DNA from: Segatella copri
Lineage (GTDB): Bacteria > Bacteroidota > Bacteroidia > Bacteroidales > Bacteroidaceae
DNA length: 64,000 nt
Direction of reading: 5' to 3'
Assembly: GCF_026015295.1 (NCBI RefSeq)
Contig: NZ_JAPDUW010000001.1
Location: forward strand, 3,371,501-3,435,500
Below are positions 33,623 through 38,980 of this stretch, piece after piece. Each line of letters opens with the position of its first letter. Position 1 is the stretch's first letter. The notes below the pieces were generated by a model that was given only the letters and a program-made list of their open reading frames with translations, was not told where the DNA came from and did no database searches. The position numbers and the translations under genes were made by a program.

Positions 33623-34846
33623 ATGAGAAGTACATTCAAGACAGTCTTCTATGTAAACGGAAGCAAGGAGAGAAACGGAATTGTCCCTATCATGGGACGT
33701 GTGACAATCAACGGAACTATCGCACAGTTCAGTTGCAAGCTGAGCGTGACCAAGGCGATATGGGATGCCAAGGGCAACAGAGCCAAAGGCAGAAGCAAGG
33801 AAGCCAATGAGGTGAACTTTGCGCTTGATAACATCAAGGCTCAAATCGCTAAGCATTACCAACGGCTTTCCGACCGTGAGGCGTTCGTTACCGCTGAAAT
33901 GGTGAGAAACGCATATCAAGGCATAGGTACGGAGTATGAGACATTACTCAGAGCTTTTGACAAGGAGAACGCAGCCTTTGCCCAACGCGTGGGAAAAGAC
34001 CGAGCTGTCCGAACCTACCGCAAGTATCTGACGGTAAGAAAGTACGTTGCCGAGTTCATCAAATTTCAGTACAAGCGCAGCGATATGTCCATGAATGAGC
34101 TTACCGAGGAGTTCATCCGTGATTTTTGTCTGTATTTGAAGAATGTCATTGGACTCACGCAATCTACCATTTGGATATACTCCATACCATTGAAGCATAT
34201 CGTCACGGCAGCACACTACAACGGCAAGATACAGAGAAATCCGTTTGCCATGTACCACGTTGACCCAGACCACAAGGAGCGTGAGTTCTTGACAGAGGAA
34301 GAATTGGACATATTTGCAGGAATAGAGTTGGAAAATCCCAACTTTGCTTTTGCGAGAGACTTGTTTATGTTTGGTTGTTGGACAGGTATCTCTTTCGTTG
34401 ACATCAAGAATCTTACAGAGGACAATGTTGCCATTATAAGTGGGTCTCCATGGATAGTTTCTCAGCGTCAAAAGACAGGCGTACCATTCAAAATTAAACT
34501 GATAGATGCAGCCATACAGATAATTGAACGTTACAAGCCATTGAGAAAAGATATGCACTTGTTTAATATTGGCTCACTTGACATGGTAAACAAGCGTATA
34601 AAGAAAGTGGCAAAAATGTGTGGCATCAAGAAGCGAATTTCATTTCATGTCTCCCGGCATTCGTTCGCAGTTTTGGCTTTAAACTACGGTATGCCGATAG
34701 AGAGTGTAAGCAAGATACTGGGACATACGGACATCGCCACAACACAAATTTACGCAAAGGTGACAAGTACTAAATTGGAGCATGACATATCAGCTTTTGA
34801 AAGTCGAATCAAGGGGCATATGCCGACAATGGGGGGAATGGCATGA
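33623..34846 (+). CDS. Tyrosine recombinase/integrase (IntDOT-like)
   Basis: The 407-residue protein has an arm-binding N-terminal region, a SAM-like core-binding domain (about 115-215) and a C-terminal catalytic domain with HVSRHSFA (H-x-x-R), LGHTDIATTQIY (His and nucleophile Tyr) and RQKTG (Lys). The first catalytic arginine position reads TGISFVDI, with serine in place of arginine, as known for the CTnDOT integrase. It overlaps the next gene by 4 bp. It is probably the integrase of a decayed integrative element; no relaxase is present. Confidence 0.9.
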   Translation: MRSTFKTVFYVNGSKERNGIVPIMGRVTINGTIAQFSCKLSVTKAIWDAKGNRAKGRSKEANEVNFALDNIKAQIAKHYQRLSDREAFVTAEMVRNAYQGIGTEYETLLRAFDKENAAFAQRVGKDRAVRTYRKYLTVRKYVAEFIKFQYKRSDMSMNELTEEFIRDFCLYLKNVIGLTQSTIWIYSIPLKHIVTAAHYNGKIQRNPFAMYHVDPDHKEREFLTEEELDIFAGIELENPNFAFARDLFMFGCWTGISFVDIKNLTEDNVAIISGSPWIVSQRQKTGVPFKIKLIDAAIQIIERYKPLRKDMHLFNIGSLDMVNKRIKKVAKMCGIKKRISFHVSRHSFAVLALNYGMPIESVSKILGHTDIATTQIYAKVTSTKLEHDISAFESRIKGHMPTMGGMA

Positions 34847-35217: not shown

Positions 35218-35719
35218 ATGTCCTCTTGCTTGTTGGCTTGGCGCTGTCGTACTGTCGTGAATAAGTACTGAAGCATAAGCATGACATTCTTACTTGTAGG
35301 GGGATGAGTTCTGTTCATAAAAATGACGGACAAAACGCCCCCTTATTTTTGTTGAATTGTTGAATATGATGAAAGAAATATTGAACATCAGGCATTTACG
35401 GCTCAACATATTCTCAACAAATCTCTCAACAAAAGAAAGATAATGTTGAAAAGAGAAAACCATGAACACCATTCCTTTCTTTCTTTTTTGCCCAGTAATT
35501 TGTTGTGTAGAGCTATTTGTTGAGAGTTTGTTGAGGGTATAAGTGGTTGGTTCTCATAAAGATAACACCTATCTTCAACAATTCAACGTTTTACATGCCC
35601 TCACTTGGTACGCTGTAAAATGTGCTTGTGGATTAATTGGCAACCGCTCTATTCTCCGAAATGGTTGCAGCAACGTTTCTTGGAGGCTTTGCGCCTCCAG
35701 CCACTTGGGCGAACCTCCG
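35218..35719. other. Non-coding segment between the RhuM-like gene and the first IS110 element
   Basis: It holds GGGGG/CCCCC terminator-like complementarity (about 35298-35350), the nested TTGTTGA repeats (35349-35588) and a GGAGGC-TTTGC-GCCTCC hairpin near 35684-35700. No gene is supported. Confidence 0.5.
35349..35588. repeat. Nested inverted repeats built from TTGTTGA iterons
   Basis: Outer arms GTTGAATTGTTGAA (35351-35364) and TTCAACAATTCAAC (35574-35587) are perfect inverted repeats. Inner arms at 35413-35433 and 35516-35535 are near-perfect (CTCAACAAA / TTTGTTGAG words, doubled). They could be integrase arm-type sites, an origin of transfer or a replication origin. Confidence 0.6.
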
Positions 35720-35734
35720 CAGTGTTTTAGCTTT

Positions 35735-35742
35735 TACCTTTG
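35735..35742 (+). promoter_or_regulatory. -7 box in the left end of IS110 element 1
   Basis: TACCTTTG predicts transcription from about 35749, exactly where the long-range stem of the candidate RNA begins. Confidence 0.55.
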
Positions 35743-35748
35743 CACCCA

Positions 35749-35862
35749 GGAATCAAGTTAGGATATTTGGTTAATGGGTGTTAAGGTGAACTATCTTTCT
35801 TTCAAGGTATGCCCTTTCTCATGTCATAGTCCTTATATAATCCAGCCAACTTTCTTGATTCC
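35749..35862 (+). ncRNA. Candidate bridge RNA of IS110 element 1
   Basis: GGAATCAAG (35749-35757) pairs perfectly with CTTGATTCC (35854-35862), closing a 114-nt domain. Inside are GTGAACTA (35786-35793), a copy of the word that ends the element (36931-36938), and a GCCCTTTC block (35811-35818) also found in the second element's candidate RNA. IS110-family transposases are known to use a non-coding bridge RNA from this position. The assignment to this locus is inference. Confidence 0.6.
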
Positions 35863-35886
35863 ATTTAACTATTAAATGTCAAAATT

Positions 35887-36939
35887 ATGGATAAAGAACT
35901 TTACATAGGCGTGGATGTCTCAAAGCAGACTCTCGACCTTGCTTATTATGACGGAGAAAGCATTGATTGGAAGAAAGCCCATATAAAGGTGAGCAACAAC
36001 AATGCAGGTTTCAAGAAAATTGGTTCATGGGTGGCAAAGGTAAGCAAGGGGTTTGATATAGTCTTGTTCTGTATGGAATATACAGGACTTTACACCCAAA
36101 ACTTTAGACTGTGGTTGGAAGAGAAACATTATATTTATAGGATGGTGGAACCTCGCAAGATGCATCGCTTTGAGCCAGACTTGGATGATGGACTGCGTTC
36201 GCTCGACCGCATCAAGACTGACGAGCTTGATTCTTTCCGCATAGCCATTTACTGTGAGCAGAACCACAGAAAGATTCTTCGCAACCCATCAAAACTTCCT
36301 TCTCCTGTATATTTTAAGTTGAAGAGGCTTTTGGCGGAACGCAAGCAGACAGTCAAGCAGTCAGTCCTTTACAAGCAGCAGCTTCATGATATATGTGCGT
36401 ATGACACAGATTTGTCTGTGGAACGTAAGAATGGGCAACTTAAAACGCTCAATGATGCACTTAAAGGCATAGACAATGAAATTGACATGTACATAAAAGA
36501 AGATGCGGACATCAGCAAGAACTTTTCCCTGCTGACATCAATACCTGGTATTGGGCGTGTTGTCGCACTTGAAACCATTGTCTTGACCGAAAACTTCATG
36601 GCAATAGATAACCCACGTAAATACGCTTGCTATATTGGTGTCGCTCCTTTCAAGAAAGAATCTGGTACATCTGTGAGAAAAGGCTCGTCAGTCTCTAAGA
36701 AAGGTTTTAAACAGGCAAAGGCAGATTTGTCCATTGCCTGTTTGGTTTGCATGCAGCACATTCCGAACATCAGAGATTACTGGGAACGCAAGAGAAAGGA
36801 GAAATGCAGTGGAATAGTGTTTAATGCAATCAAGTTTAAGATGATACTCCGTATGTTTGCCGTTATAAAACGAGGTACTCCGTATGTGGAGACGGACAAT
36901 TATCGAAATGGGAAAAACAAGCAACCAGGAGTGAACTAA
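35887..36939 (+). CDS. IS110-family transposase (bridge-RNA-guided recombinase), element 1
   Basis: The 350-residue protein has the N-terminal RuvC-like DEDD domain (YIGVDVSKQTLDL with the first Asp, FCMEYTGLY with Glu, RIKTDELDSFRIA with the later acidic residues) and the C-terminal Transposase_20 domain (LTSIPGIGRVVALETI, YACYIGVAPFKKESGTSV with the catalytic serine region). Length is typical, and the gene is intact. Upstream lies a non-coding structured left end; the stop codon abuts the element's right end. Confidence 0.92.
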   Translation: MDKELYIGVDVSKQTLDLAYYDGESIDWKKAHIKVSNNNAGFKKIGSWVAKVSKGFDIVLFCMEYTGLYTQNFRLWLEEKHYIYRMVEPRKMHRFEPDLDDGLRSLDRIKTDELDSFRIAIYCEQNHRKILRNPSKLPSPVYFKLKRLLAERKQTVKQSVLYKQQLHDICAYDTDLSVERKNGQLKTLNDALKGIDNEIDMYIKEDADISKNFSLLTSIPGIGRVVALETIVLTENFMAIDNPRKYACYIGVAPFKKESGTSVRKGSSVSKKGFKQAKADLSIACLVCMQHIPNIRDYWERKRKEKCSGIVFNAIKFKMILRMFAVIKRGTPYVETDNYRNGKNKQPGVN

Positions 36940-36995
36940 CAGTGTTTTAAGACCATCACTATACCATGATAGAGTCTCTTGGTTGCTTTTGGCAC

Positions 36996-37003
36996 TACCT
37001 TTG
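36996..37003 (+). promoter_or_regulatory. -7 box in the left end of IS110 element 2
   Basis: TACCTTTG, identical to the box in element 1, predicts a start near 37010, just before the candidate RNA stem. Confidence 0.55.
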
Positions 37004-37009
37004 CGAGGA

Positions 37010-37185
37010 ATCCTCAAAAGGAAGGAACTCCAGACAGAGGTAGTGAACTTTTTAATCTTAGGCAAAGCCCTTTCCCTTGATATAGTCTCCTCTGCCCGAA
37101 ATGTCAGACTCAGTGCCTTTTAGGGAATTAGCTGTCCGTCCCAGCTTTTAAAAGATTTGGCTTATCCTGACATAGAGAGTTCCTT
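37010..37185 (+). ncRNA. Candidate bridge RNA of IS110 element 2
   Basis: AAGGAACTC (37022-37030) pairs perfectly with GAGTTCCTT (37177-37185), the same closing-stem layout as element 1 but with different bases. It encloses GTGAACT (37043-37049), GCCCTTTC (37067-37074) and an ATAGTC word shared with element 1. A GAGGA/TCCTC hairpin sits at the 5' end (37004-37014). Fold and function are inferred. Confidence 0.6.
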
Positions 37186-37205
37186 TCGTAAAGCGGTGCA
37201 AAGAT

Positions 37206-38252
37206 ATGAAAAATAAATCATTTGTAGGCATTGACATCTCTAAAAATGTCATAGATGTATCTATATTTCGTGAGGACACCAACATCAAAATGTTCCCTCA
37301 TGAGGTGTTCAACAACACTCGCAAGGGATTTGGCGATATGTGCTCATGGCTCAAAAAGAGCCGTGTGGTACTTTCCCAAGCCCTGTTTGGCATGGAATTT
37401 ACAGGTTGCTACTCCTTGGACTTGGAAAAATTCCTCACGTCCAAGAATTACTCTTTCTGTATGCTTAGTACACGTATAGTAAAACATCATCCTATGGGGA
37501 CAATAGATAAGCGAGACAAGAATGACTCTGCAAAGATAGCTGACTTCCTCTATCGTTATGATGGCACGGAATGTGCCAAGCCATACAAGTTGCCAAGCAA
37601 GGCTATGCAACAATTGAAGCAACTTGTCAATGAGCGTAAGTTCCTTGTGGAGCAACGGACAAACTTTATGAACCGAATGCAGATGTTTGAAACGAAAGAG
37701 GATTCTGCCATGTATGAGAGCTACATTAAAAAGCTCAATCATGACATTGAGAAGATAGATCAGGAAGAGTGTGAATTAATGTCCAAGGAGGAAGATGTCT
37801 TTGACACTTTTCAGAATCTGTTGACGATACCAGGAATTGGTTTTGTCAATGCAACAAACATAATTGCCATCACACGAAACTTTACCGCTTTTGACACAGC
37901 TCGGCAATATGCGAGATATGTTGGCGTAGCTCCATGCAGTCACACTTCTGGTACCAGTGTGAAATGGCGTGCCCGACCTTCCGCACACTGTAACGGTCAA
38001 GTGAAAGCTGACCTGTCTATGGCGGCATTGAGAGCTGTTGAGTACGATGTGGAAATGCAAATGTTTTATAATCGAAAGTTAGGAGGCAGAAAAGATTCTG
38101 ATACTAAGCGTAAGGCATTGAATGCCGTCAAGTTTAAGCTCATTTGCAGAATGTTTGCCATAGGCAAGCAAAAGAGAAAATGGGAAGTGTTGAACACCTC
38201 TGACGACAGAAAGAACTTACATATTGAAAAGTCCAAAGCAAGTGAACTATGA
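37206..38252 (+). CDS. IS110-family transposase, element 2
   Basis: The 348-residue protein shares the DEDD (FVGIDISKNVIDVSIF, FGMEFTGCY, DKNDSAKIADFLYR) and Transposase_20 (LLTIPGIGFVNATNIIAIT, YARYVGVAPCSHTSGTSV) architecture but is clearly a different lineage from element 1. The gene is intact. A TATCTTTG-like context is not visible upstream on this strand, so it may be expressed from the bridge-RNA promoter. Confidence 0.92.
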   Translation: MKNKSFVGIDISKNVIDVSIFREDTNIKMFPHEVFNNTRKGFGDMCSWLKKSRVVLSQALFGMEFTGCYSLDLEKFLTSKNYSFCMLSTRIVKHHPMGTIDKRDKNDSAKIADFLYRYDGTECAKPYKLPSKAMQQLKQLVNERKFLVEQRTNFMNRMQMFETKEDSAMYESYIKKLNHDIEKIDQEECELMSKEEDVFDTFQNLLTIPGIGFVNATNIIAITRNFTAFDTARQYARYVGVAPCSHTSGTSVKWRARPSAHCNGQVKADLSMAALRAVEYDVEMQMFYNRKLGGRKDSDTKRKALNAVKFKLICRMFAIGKQKRKWEVLNTSDDRKNLHIEKSKASEL

Positions 38253-38288
38253 CAATGTACCATTGTCTCTTATAGTCTTGTGAGGACA

Positions 38289-38356
38289 GATACGGATAAC
38301 TAATTAGGAATCGAGCAAAAAGCTATTAAAAGAAAGAGTTCCGTATCGTTTTTTTT
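38289..38356 (+). terminator. Terminator-like hairpin after IS110 element 2
   Basis: GATACGGA pairs with TCCGTATC over a long loop, followed by eight T. It may end transcription from the elements. Confidence 0.55.
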
Positions 38357-38980
38357 GTAACAGAAAAGTCAAAAAATGTCTTCTTCTGCTACAGGGGTAG
38401 GTATGACTATATGCTTTCTGGGGGCTATTTTGCTTATTTTAACACAAAAAAGCTCTCAAAAATTTGGTGATGTCTTAGGAATCATGGCATTAGATTTATG
38501 CAGACTATACCGAGGACACACAGCACACTCGGCATAGTTCACAAAGGAAATCAACAACACACAACTGAAACACTTGGCAAGTTTCACACTGAAAATATCA
38601 CCTTTTCCTTTGCAAACTCCATGTACAAAGTAGCTTGTGTCTGTGACCTTGTTCTTTCAATGTGGCAGCTTTGATGTTTGGCGTAAATTGAGAGAATTAA
38701 GGTCTGCAACCTTGGGCATGGAAAGCCGAAAGGCAAATATCTCGTCTTTTGTTCTTAGAGGAGGGAGCGAGGTTATGTTTTGGGAACCCCAAAACGCCTC
38801 GCTCCACCATGAGGGCGGAGAAATTTTGCTCCCAACGGTTGCAGAAAGTGAGTGTACCAACTGTAGGCAGTGCATAGAAATATGTAAATAGATTTGTCAG
38901 GTGTAGTTTATTCTTCCTTTATTTGCACAAAAGTATGTTTTGAGTGTTATAAAAAATAAAAAAATGCACTATTACGTTGA
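38357..38980. other. Non-coding remainder of the mobile region
   Basis: Apart from the cruciform at 38764-38805 no supported feature is seen. Short frames (for example an 84-codon plus-strand frame at 38637-38891 reading through the cruciform) have no recognisable domain. Confidence 0.4.
38764..38805. repeat. Perfect two-part cruciform
   Basis: GGAGCGAGG pairs with CCTCGCTCC and, inside it, GTTTTGGG pairs with CCCAAAAC around a 3-nt loop, giving 17 pairs with one small bulge. The layout fits an origin of transfer, a single-strand recombination site or a very stable RNA hairpin at the edge of the mobile region. Confidence 0.65.

What the first reader, a model, noticed from the sequence alone, without database searches (positions are those of the whole stretch)
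35720..38264. Tandem IS110 elements each carry a covarying, promoter-led structured RNA locus in the left end
Both elements have, upstream of the transposase, the same layout with different bases: a TACCTTTG promoter box; a 9-bp closing stem (GGAATCAAG/CTTGATTCC in element 1; AAGGAACTC/GAGTTCCTT in element 2); the word GTGAACT; and a GCCCTTTC block followed by ATAGTC. Compensatory change in the closing stem with retained layout is strong evidence for a conserved RNA. IS110-family recombinases are known (IS621) to use a bridge RNA from this position. These would be Bacteroidota versions expressed from a host-type promoter, sitting side by side.
Basis: partly seen in the sequence, partly recalled or inferred. 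Interest (0 to 1): 0.85.

Follow-up and report, generated by a model that had tools for sequence, protein, structure and literature searches.

The report
Two-recombinase IS110 element, dual target guides
What looked like two neighbouring jumping genes in a gut Prevotella/Segatella relative is one mobile element with two recombinases and two separate guide RNAs aimed at different DNA targets, while the guide for its own ends sits on other RNAs, which looks like a natural split, multi-target version of bridge-RNA recombination.

Summary
The structured RNAs are real, but these are not two tandem IS110 elements. Window 35732-38483 (2,752 bp) is ONE mobile unit: its joined flanks align across the junction to an empty site in Segatella copri iA622, and the tnp1+tnp2 pair recurs in fixed order in 10 of 10 loci with enough sequence. 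It carries four structured non-coding loci. H1 (left end) and H2 (behind tnp1) are target-binding loops without a recognisable donor loop. RNA2 (before tnp2) and RNA4 (right end) carry donor-binding loops. Of 19 insertions scored, 13 fit H1 (6) or H2 (7) at p<0.002; none fits H3 or H4. Copies with identical H1 and H2 used different loops: window fits H2, L026 fits H1; L032/L033 fit H2, L034 fits H1. In 10 of 10 elements the donor-left 9-mer recurs once, always in RNA4. H1 and H2 stems covary beyond controls. Single-recombinase relatives read by eye show one ordinary bridge RNA. Best reading: a natural split bridge-RNA system with interchangeable target guides and two recombinases. One unit and dual guides: strong. 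Trans cooperation and division of labour: inferred.

The parts
35732..38483 (+). whole mobile element, 2,752 bp, no target-site duplication beyond the core C
   Evidence: match to S. copri iA622 runs from window 35731 to 38486; empty-site alignment
35719..35731 (+). left target flank GCAGTGTTTTAGC
   Evidence: continuous with the right flank in iA622 empty sites L061-L063
38484..38495 (+). right target flank ATGGCATTAGAT
35735..35742 (+). TACCTTTG, -7-type promoter box; a TTG partner lies in the right end, 20 nt upstream across the circle junction
   Evidence: 9 of 10 elements
35749..35862 (+). RNA1 / H1: target-binding loop only
35795..35803 (+). H1 left target guide CTTTCTTTC (target of copy L026)
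35818..35823 (+). H1 right target guide CTCATG (pairs CATGAG of copy L026)
35887..36939 (+). tnp1, IS110-family DEDD recombinase, 350 aa; D10, E64, D112, D115, S259 invariant in the 5 aligned sequences
36919..36988 (+). H2: target-binding loop overlapping the tnp1 stop codon, no donor loop
36940..36949 (+). H2 left target guide CAGTGTTTTA, identical to the window's left target
36960..36968 (+). H2 right target guide TATACCATG (pairs CATGGTATA; iA622 empty site reads CATGGTATT, the window flank CATGGCATT)
36996..37003 (+). TACCTTTG, internal promoter-like box of RNA2
   Evidence: CACTACCTTTGC in 8 of 9 rows
37022..37185 (+). RNA2: target-type loop H3 followed by donor-type loop DBLa
37149..37157 (+). 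DBLa right donor guide TAAAAGATT, reverse complement of the circle junction AATC|TTTTA
   Evidence: 7-mer TAAAAGA in 10 of 10 elements
37206..38252 (+). tnp2, second IS110-family recombinase, 348 aa, 32% identical to tnp1; D10, E64, D104, D107, S248 invariant in the 6 aligned sequences
38232..38350 (+). RNA4 in the right end: closed target-type hairpin H4 + donor-binding loop DBLb
38304..38312 (+). DBLb left donor guide TTAGGAATC, identical to the element's right terminus
   Evidence: 10 of 10 elements
38327..38333 (+). DBLb right donor guide TAAAAGA, reverse complement of TC|TTTTA
   Evidence: 9 of 10 elements
38475..38483 (+). right terminus TTAGGAATC (left half of the donor)

Best explanation
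A single IS110-family element carries two recombinases and a divided set of guide RNAs. SHOWN from sequence: one pair of ends around both genes; two target-binding loops (H1 before tnp1, H2 behind it), each matching the insertion sites of some copies; donor-binding loops recognisable only on other RNAs (DBLa in RNA2, DBLb in RNA4). INFERRED: the excised circle joins right end and left end and so completes a promoter that drives RNA1 and tnp1. Recombinase dimers loaded with H1 or H2 RNA grip the target through left and right target guides. Dimers loaded with RNA4/RNA2 grip the joined ends through the donor guides. The two dimers form the recombination tetramer and exchange strands at a shared C. 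Most likely division of labour: Tnp1 holds the target RNAs that flank its gene, Tnp2 the donor RNAs that flank its gene. Since target and donor guides are not on one RNA, two target guides can be used with one donor guide, giving one element at least two kinds of insertion site.
For: One unit: empty site; match to iA622 starts and stops at the ends; pair in 10 of 10 loci from 9 genomes; tnp1 and tnp2 each one clade at 100/100 with the same early order, L036 then window then the rest; purifying selection (tnp2 in 6 comparisons; tnp1 in the one where dS is not saturated). Dual guides: 13 of 19 insertions fit H1 or H2 at p<0.002 (uncorrected) against 40,000 background sites; 8 of 9 with both flanks; H3 0 of 16, H4 0 of 15. 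Own element scores highest in 9 of 9 two-flank rows; 0 of 20,000 permutations reach the total. A scan of the whole element on both strands puts the best left-target match in H2 for window and L033 and in H1 for L034. Same loops, different target: window/L026 (10 mismatches in 2,752 columns) and L032,L033/L034. Donor. Structure. Single relatives L114, L115, L021, L022 show, by eye, one LE RNA with both loops.
Against: 6 of 19 insertions do not reach p<0.002: L029 (both flanks; H1 0.039, H2 0.027), L030, L038, L087, L085, L031; L030 and L038 have only a left flank, the last three only a right one, and the H2 of L038's element is unknown. The loop segments were delimited by me after seeing first matches. 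The scan that used no such choice (9 left flanks) is decisive for 3, tied for 3 (L026, L027, L035), puts the best match elsewhere for L028 and L029 and shows no preference for L030. Sites within a genome (L027/L102/L113; L037/L039) or target repeat (L032/L033) are not independent. The two flanks of L032 lie on different contigs and were paired by me. 'No donor loop' in H1/H2 rests on exact words; one chance-like TAAAAGA lies in the left end of L035. H3 has variable arms and no matching insertion, H4 is closed; neither is explained. In L034 the lowest-energy fold of H1 does not keep the guide loop open. No transcript, binding or recombination data. 8 of the 9 genomes are metagenome bins. Which protein binds which RNA is not shown.
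Confidence: 0.72

Rival explanations
1. Two ordinary IS110 elements that happen to lie side by side, each with its own left end and bridge RNA.
For: Two recombinase genes, each with an upstream structured RNA and a TACCTTTG box; the internal box CACTACCTTTGCACCC resembles the outer left end, as if an ancestral left end had been swallowed.
Against: One empty site for the whole 2,752 bp; pair in 10 of 10 loci, 9 of them with both proteins at only 45-63% identity to the window's and one (L026) at 99%; the donor-left 9-mer occurs only at the outer right end and in RNA4, so no internal right end was found; 4 of 4 tnp2 orthologues of 45% or more with upstream sequence have tnp1 (these four lie in genomes already among the 10 loci).
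Confidence: 0.03
2. One composite element, but each target loop works on a long transcript together with a donor loop, so in effect there are ordinary bispecific bridge RNAs with alternative target loops, or tnp1 is a passenger.
For: The right arm of H2 ends only 20-104 nt before the TACCTTTG box of RNA2 in 7 elements measured and could be co-transcribed with H3-DBLa; both recombinases keep their catalytic residues, so either might suffice.
Against: H1 is separated from any donor loop by the whole tnp1 gene; RNA2 has its own promoter-like box behind H2; both genes appear to be under purifying selection.
Confidence: 0.2
3. The two RNA sets serve different reactions: H1/H2 with Tnp1 for insertion, H3/H4-bearing RNA2/RNA4 with Tnp2 for excision and circle formation.
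For: H3 has variable arms but fits 0 of 16 insertion targets, so it may read something else; H4 is closed and RNA4 reads only the donor.
Against: No match of H3 arms to the junctions was demonstrated; the single-recombinase relatives seem to manage with one RNA and one protein (by eye).
Confidence: 0.15

Closest known systems
IS621 (IS110 group) bridge RNA system, PMC11208160 and PMC11208158
   Same: DEDD/RuvC-Tnp recombinase (PDB 8wt6), left-end RNA, 8-9 nt left guide and shorter right guide on either side of an internal loop, promoter restored in the circle
   Different: two recombinases, two stand-alone target loops, donor loops on separate RNAs, one of them in the right end; the shared core base is a C (donor TC) instead of a CT dinucleotide
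IS1111 group / seekRNA elements, PMC11187229 (listing) and the IS1111 section of PMC11208160
   Same: a structured guide RNA can lie downstream of the recombinase (H2, RNA4)
   Different: RNAs on both sides of each gene; two genes; subterminal inverted repeats were not tested here
single-recombinase Bacteroidota IS110s (L114, L115, L021, L022; L116 by protein only)
   Same: nearest protein relatives of tnp1 and tnp2 in the tree; GTGAAC-type target loop and TAGAA-type donor loop upstream of the gene; [CT]TTTAGAT...-type left end (read by eye)
   Different: one gene and one upstream RNA holding both loops; right ends were not delimited except by eye (about 110 nt in L022)

Membership tests
IS110 family | recombinase with DEDD_Tnp_IS110 and Transposase_20 domains | tested here: met
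   both proteins above the gathering cut-offs
IS110 family | DEDD acidic residues and catalytic serine | tested here: met
   invariant columns; alignment to IS621/ISCro4. Naming these columns as the catalytic ones rests on recalled IS110 knowledge plus D102 and S241 named in passages of PMC11208158
IS110 family | scarless insertion, no long target duplication | tested here: met
IS110 family | circular intermediate | not testable with these tools
   only indirect: junction promoter geometry
IS110 family | no terminal inverted repeats | not tested
   only a general repeat listing of the region was made (25 of 51 inverted pairs shown)
IS110-group bridge RNA (IS621 type) | structured RNA in the left end whose loop pairs with target | tested here: met
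   H1:
IS110-group bridge RNA (IS621 type) | target- and donor-binding loops on one RNA | tested here: not met
   the loops that fit insertions (H1, H2) carry no recognisable donor loop; exact donor-left 9-mer only in RNA4. RNA2 has the bispecific layout, but its H3 fits 0 of 16 insertions
IS110-group bridge RNA (IS621 type) | one recombinase per element | tested here: not met
IS110-group bridge RNA (IS621 type) | CT core dinucleotide | tested here: not met
   shared base is C; donor TC, targets GC/TC/AC/CC
IS1111 group | 7-17 bp subterminal inverted repeats | not tested
   no dedicated search made
any Rfam family | match at gathering score | tested here: not met
   0 matches in the window

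The most novel reading that the evidence does not exclude
A natural two-protein, split-RNA bridge recombinase: Tnp1 with interchangeable target-only RNAs (H1, H2) and Tnp2 with donor-only RNA (RNA4) assemble a heterotetramer, so one donor can be sent to several targets by adding target RNAs, with RNA2/H3 kept for a separate reaction such as excision.
Probability: 0.5. Interest if true: 0.93.

Novelty: new variant of a known kind. Interest (0 to 1): 0.86.

Why it matters
The bridge RNAs described in the papers seen here put target and donor recognition on one molecule used by one recombinase. Here nature appears to have separated them and multiplied the target half. That gives a direct test of whether target and donor modules can act in trans, suggests multiplexable target RNAs for large-DNA editing with one donor, and explains how one insertion sequence can colonise two unrelated site classes.

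Tried and rejected
Rejected: two independent tandem elements. Rejected: counting the difference between the two closing stems as covariation (different RNAs). Rejected: H3 or H4 as the loop behind the observed insertions (0 of 16 and 0 of 15 sites at p<0.002; lowest H3 p 0.027, lowest H4 p 0.11). Weak: covariation of the DBLb stem (1 of 8 pairs, 67 of 500 shuffles reach it). RNAalifold on RNA4 gave an uninformative fold because several rows were cut short. RNA2's target-type hairpin H3 alone does not fold better than shuffles in the window (z +0.93). A first structure string for H1 was one column off and was replaced. In one search the comparison with integrated copies was read three bases off; one search repeats it correctly (0 of 9).

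Left out before the count: L036 (ends uncertain), L064 (right flank of a variant whose loops are not known), L108 (target followed by an LE-like 15-mer but no element), repeats of the same right flank (L091, L094), and loci that repeat a locus already used. Viral contigs gave no relative of tnp1, none of tnp2 with the single query and only 23-35% relatives with the alignment; plasmids, searched with tnp1 only, gave only hits under 60%. A variable base in DBLa/DBLb that would explain the shared +1 target base was looked for by eye and not found. L040 (Spirosoma) has two IS110-type genes 1.15 kb apart; I did not test whether they form one element.

Literature: searches (40 of 71 listed; 30 of 50 listed) in the PMC open library, no bioRxiv; no title or abstract start listed describes an IS110 element with two recombinases or several target loops. 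That is all the claim of absence rests on. PMC11208160: outline with abstract, sections 4, 6 and 12, and passages seen; PMC11208158: passages only; PMC11187229: listing and one term search with no hits; other papers: listing only.
Full report
WHAT IS THERE. The window carries two IS110-family recombinase genes, tnp1 (35887-36939, 350 aa) and tnp2 (37206-38252, 348 aa), both with DEDD_Tnp_IS110 and Transposase_20 domains and 32% identical. No Rfam family matches the window. The nearest named relative is Segatella copri iA622, with a copy whose proteins are 99% identical; the two elements differ by 10 mismatches and 1 gap in 2,752 columns.

ONE ELEMENT, NOT TWO. A DNA search of iA622 with the window gave one full match, from window 35731 to 38486, so the shared unit contains both genes. 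Three other places in iA622 hold the left flank without the element. Window flanks joined at ...TTTTAGC|ATGGCATTAG... align across the junction to those empty sites: 142 bp at 85% for L061, 85 bp at 93% and 92% for L063 and L062, each with one small gap elsewhere and none at the junction. The unit is 35732-38483. In a scan of genome contigs and the layout check, 10 of 10 loci (9 genomes; L033 and L035 share one) with a tnp1 orthologue of at least 56% identity and enough downstream sequence have tnp2 right behind it. L032 stops at a contig end inside RNA2, L037-L039 stop inside tnp1, and L001 shows RNA2 and the start of tnp2 before its contig ends. In L035 the tnp1 match covers only 296 residues. 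In the tnp2 search 7 of 299 genomes matched; of five orthologues of 45% or more, 4 of 4 with upstream sequence have tnp1 and the fifth starts at a contig end; these genomes are also among those above. In a tree of 38 proteins tnp1 and tnp2 each form one clade (100/100), and in both L036 branches first and the window second; five single-recombinase proteins (L114, L115, L116, L021, L022) lie in the same larger group. dN/dS is 0.09-0.22 in six tnp2 comparisons and 0.08 in the only tnp1 comparison of six in which dS is not saturated. In the protein database 284 tnp1 and 255 tnp2 relatives pass 1e-60; nine exact contig lengths, including 4,476 and 119,882, occur in both of the parts of the lists that I compared (first 69 and 62 rows). 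This suggests the same contigs but does not prove it.

FOUR STRUCTURED LOCI. H1 in the left end; H2 right behind tnp1 (in the window it overlaps the stop codon); RNA2 before tnp2, made of a target-type loop H3 and a donor-type loop DBLa; RNA4 behind tnp2, made of a closed hairpin H4 and a donor-type loop DBLb. In the window H1, H2 and H4-DBLb fold better than shuffles (z -2.84, -3.37, -3.37; 0, 2 and 1 of 200 shuffles as good), H3 alone does not (+0.93, 157 of 200). In L034 H1 gives -2.20 and H2 -2.06. In the window's H1 and DBLb the predicted internal loop places the two guide arms opposite each other; in L034's H1 the lowest-energy fold pairs the left arm locally instead. On nine homologues 13 of 14 H2 pairs show changes on both sides with pairing kept, 96% of cells paired, 0 of 500 shuffles as high on all five measures, slid controls 40-46%. 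For H1 it is 8 of 15 pairs (15 of RNAalifold's 18 were counted), 89% of cells, 0 of 500 on four measures but 165 of 500 for further pair types, slid controls 44-59%. Both structures were derived from the same alignments, which favours them. RNAalifold gives 10 of 38 pairs with such changes for RNA2. The DBLb stem is nearly invariant and says little.

TARGET GUIDES. I collected 19 insertion sites with at least one flank: 9 with both flanks, 7 left only, 3 right only. The two flanks of L032 come from different contigs (L032 and L081) of one genome. Each site was scored against each loop of its own element and against 40,000 positions with a C at the core, sampled from 51,706 in the window and the flanks of eight loci. 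13 of 19 fit H1 or H2 at p<0.002 (not corrected for two loops): 8 of 9, 5 of 7 and 0 of 3. H1 fits L026, L028, L034, L035, L037, L039; H2 fits window, L027, L102, L113, L032, L033, L001. H3 fits 0 of 16, H4 0 of 15. Among the nine two-flank sites the own element scores highest every time (mean 14.6; other elements mean 9.4, maximum 14; own H3/H4 8-11), and 0 of 20,000 permutations reach the sum. A scan of the whole element on both strands, with no loop chosen, was possible for nine left flanks. The best match lies in H2 for the window (10 of 11; next 8) and L033 (10; next 9) and in H1 for L034 (10; next 9). For L026, L027 and L035 the loop ties with other places (in L027, at two of three offsets, both tied places lie in H2). 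For L028 and L029 the best match lies elsewhere, and L030 shows no preference. The strongest cases are identical loops with different targets (loops checked). The window sits in CAGTGTTTTA-GC|ATGG, which is H2, and L026 in CTTTCTTTC|ATGAG, which is H1. L032 and L033 sit in GCTGCATCTC (H2) and L034 in TTTCATAC|GGTTTA (H1); L033 and L034 differ by 4 mismatches and a 46-column gap. Not explained: L029 (H1 0.039, H2 0.027), L030, L038 (H2 of that element unknown), L087, L085, L031. L029 and L033 also have deletions in the 3' part of DBLb.

DONOR GUIDES. In 10 of 10 elements the last nine bases of the right end (TTAGAAATC, or TTAGGAATC in the window and L026) occur exactly once elsewhere in the element, always in RNA4; base-shuffles of one element give 0.01. 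The A/G difference is carried by both partners. The 7-mer complementary to the junction TC|TTTTA occurs in DBLa in 10 of 10 and in DBLb in 9 of 10 (absent in the deleted L029); it also occurs in tnp1 of the window and L026 and in the left end of L035. Exact words are all that was tested, so a weak donor loop in H1 or H2 is not excluded. Joined right and left ends place TTG 20 nt before TACCTTTG in 9 of 10 elements; at the same place integrated copies have TTG in 0 of 9. That matches the Bacteroidota promoter spacing as I recall it, and the circle-borne promoter described for IS621 (PMC11208160, passages).

HOW IT MOST LIKELY WORKS. IS621 uses two recombinase dimers, one on the target loop and one on the donor loop, with a linker between the loops that is not visible in the structure (PMC11208160 and PMC11208158, passages). 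Here those loops are on different stretches of RNA. The simplest reading is that an H1- or H2-loaded dimer finds the target, an RNA4- or RNA2-loaded dimer holds the joined ends, and the dimers form the tetramer. Since H1 and H2 flank tnp1 and the donor RNAs flank tnp2, I infer Tnp1 for target and Tnp2 for donor; nothing here tests that. H3 may be a rarely used third target loop, a relic of the ancestral bridge RNA, or serve excision.

ORIGIN. Single relatives, read by eye, carry one upstream RNA with both loops (L114: left guide GGTGCTGC equals its left flank). The internal box of the double element resembles a left end. Fusion of two related elements, loss of the inner ends and specialisation of the RNAs is a plausible history (inference). 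The double form was seen only in Prevotella-type genomes; one tnp1 relative of 57% identity in the protein search is labelled Bacteroides intestinalis, without context. An order-wide search of 393 genomes at E<=1e-45 returned 15 relatives, none with a second recombinase beside it in the fetched stretch, although some lie near contig ends.

VERDICT.

Noticed in passing
H1, H2, H3 right guides, 8 elements: Within an element the target base right after the core C called by H1, H2 and H3 agrees in 6 of 8 elements (A, A, G, G, G, C); exceptions L028 and L035. No partner position found; perhaps a handshake-type constraint. Several of the elements are related.
   Followed up: partly
RNA2 H3, 37036-37097: H3 has arms that vary between elements like a guide, but fits none of 16 insertion sites; function unexplained.
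   Followed up: partly
38232-38282: H4 looks like a target-type hairpin whose guide arms pair with each other; window and relatives differ in sequence there.
   Followed up: partly
L108:100-180: An H2-type target GCTGCATCTC followed directly by the 15-mer CTTTTACCTTTGCAC of the element's left end but by no element: scar or chance.
   Followed up: no
window 35630-35731: The target lies in a repeat (GGAGGCTTTGCGCCTCC...GCAGTGTTTTAGCATGGTATTAG) with at least three further copies in S. copri iA622, downstream of a tyrosine integrase gene (33623-34846) in the window.
   Followed up: partly
L032/L081, L033, L108 flanks: H2-type targets of these elements look like a promoter-associated repeat (GATAGGCTGCATCTC... 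with a TTTGCACTATCTTTGC-like promoter downstream), so insertions would land just upstream of genes.
   Followed up: no
L029, L033 right ends: Both copies lack the 3' part of the DBLb loop; possibly defective copies or assembly collapse.
   Followed up: no
L040:2800-5896: Two IS110-type recombinase genes on one strand, 1.15 kb apart, in Spirosoma utsteinense; not tested for being one element.
   Followed up: no
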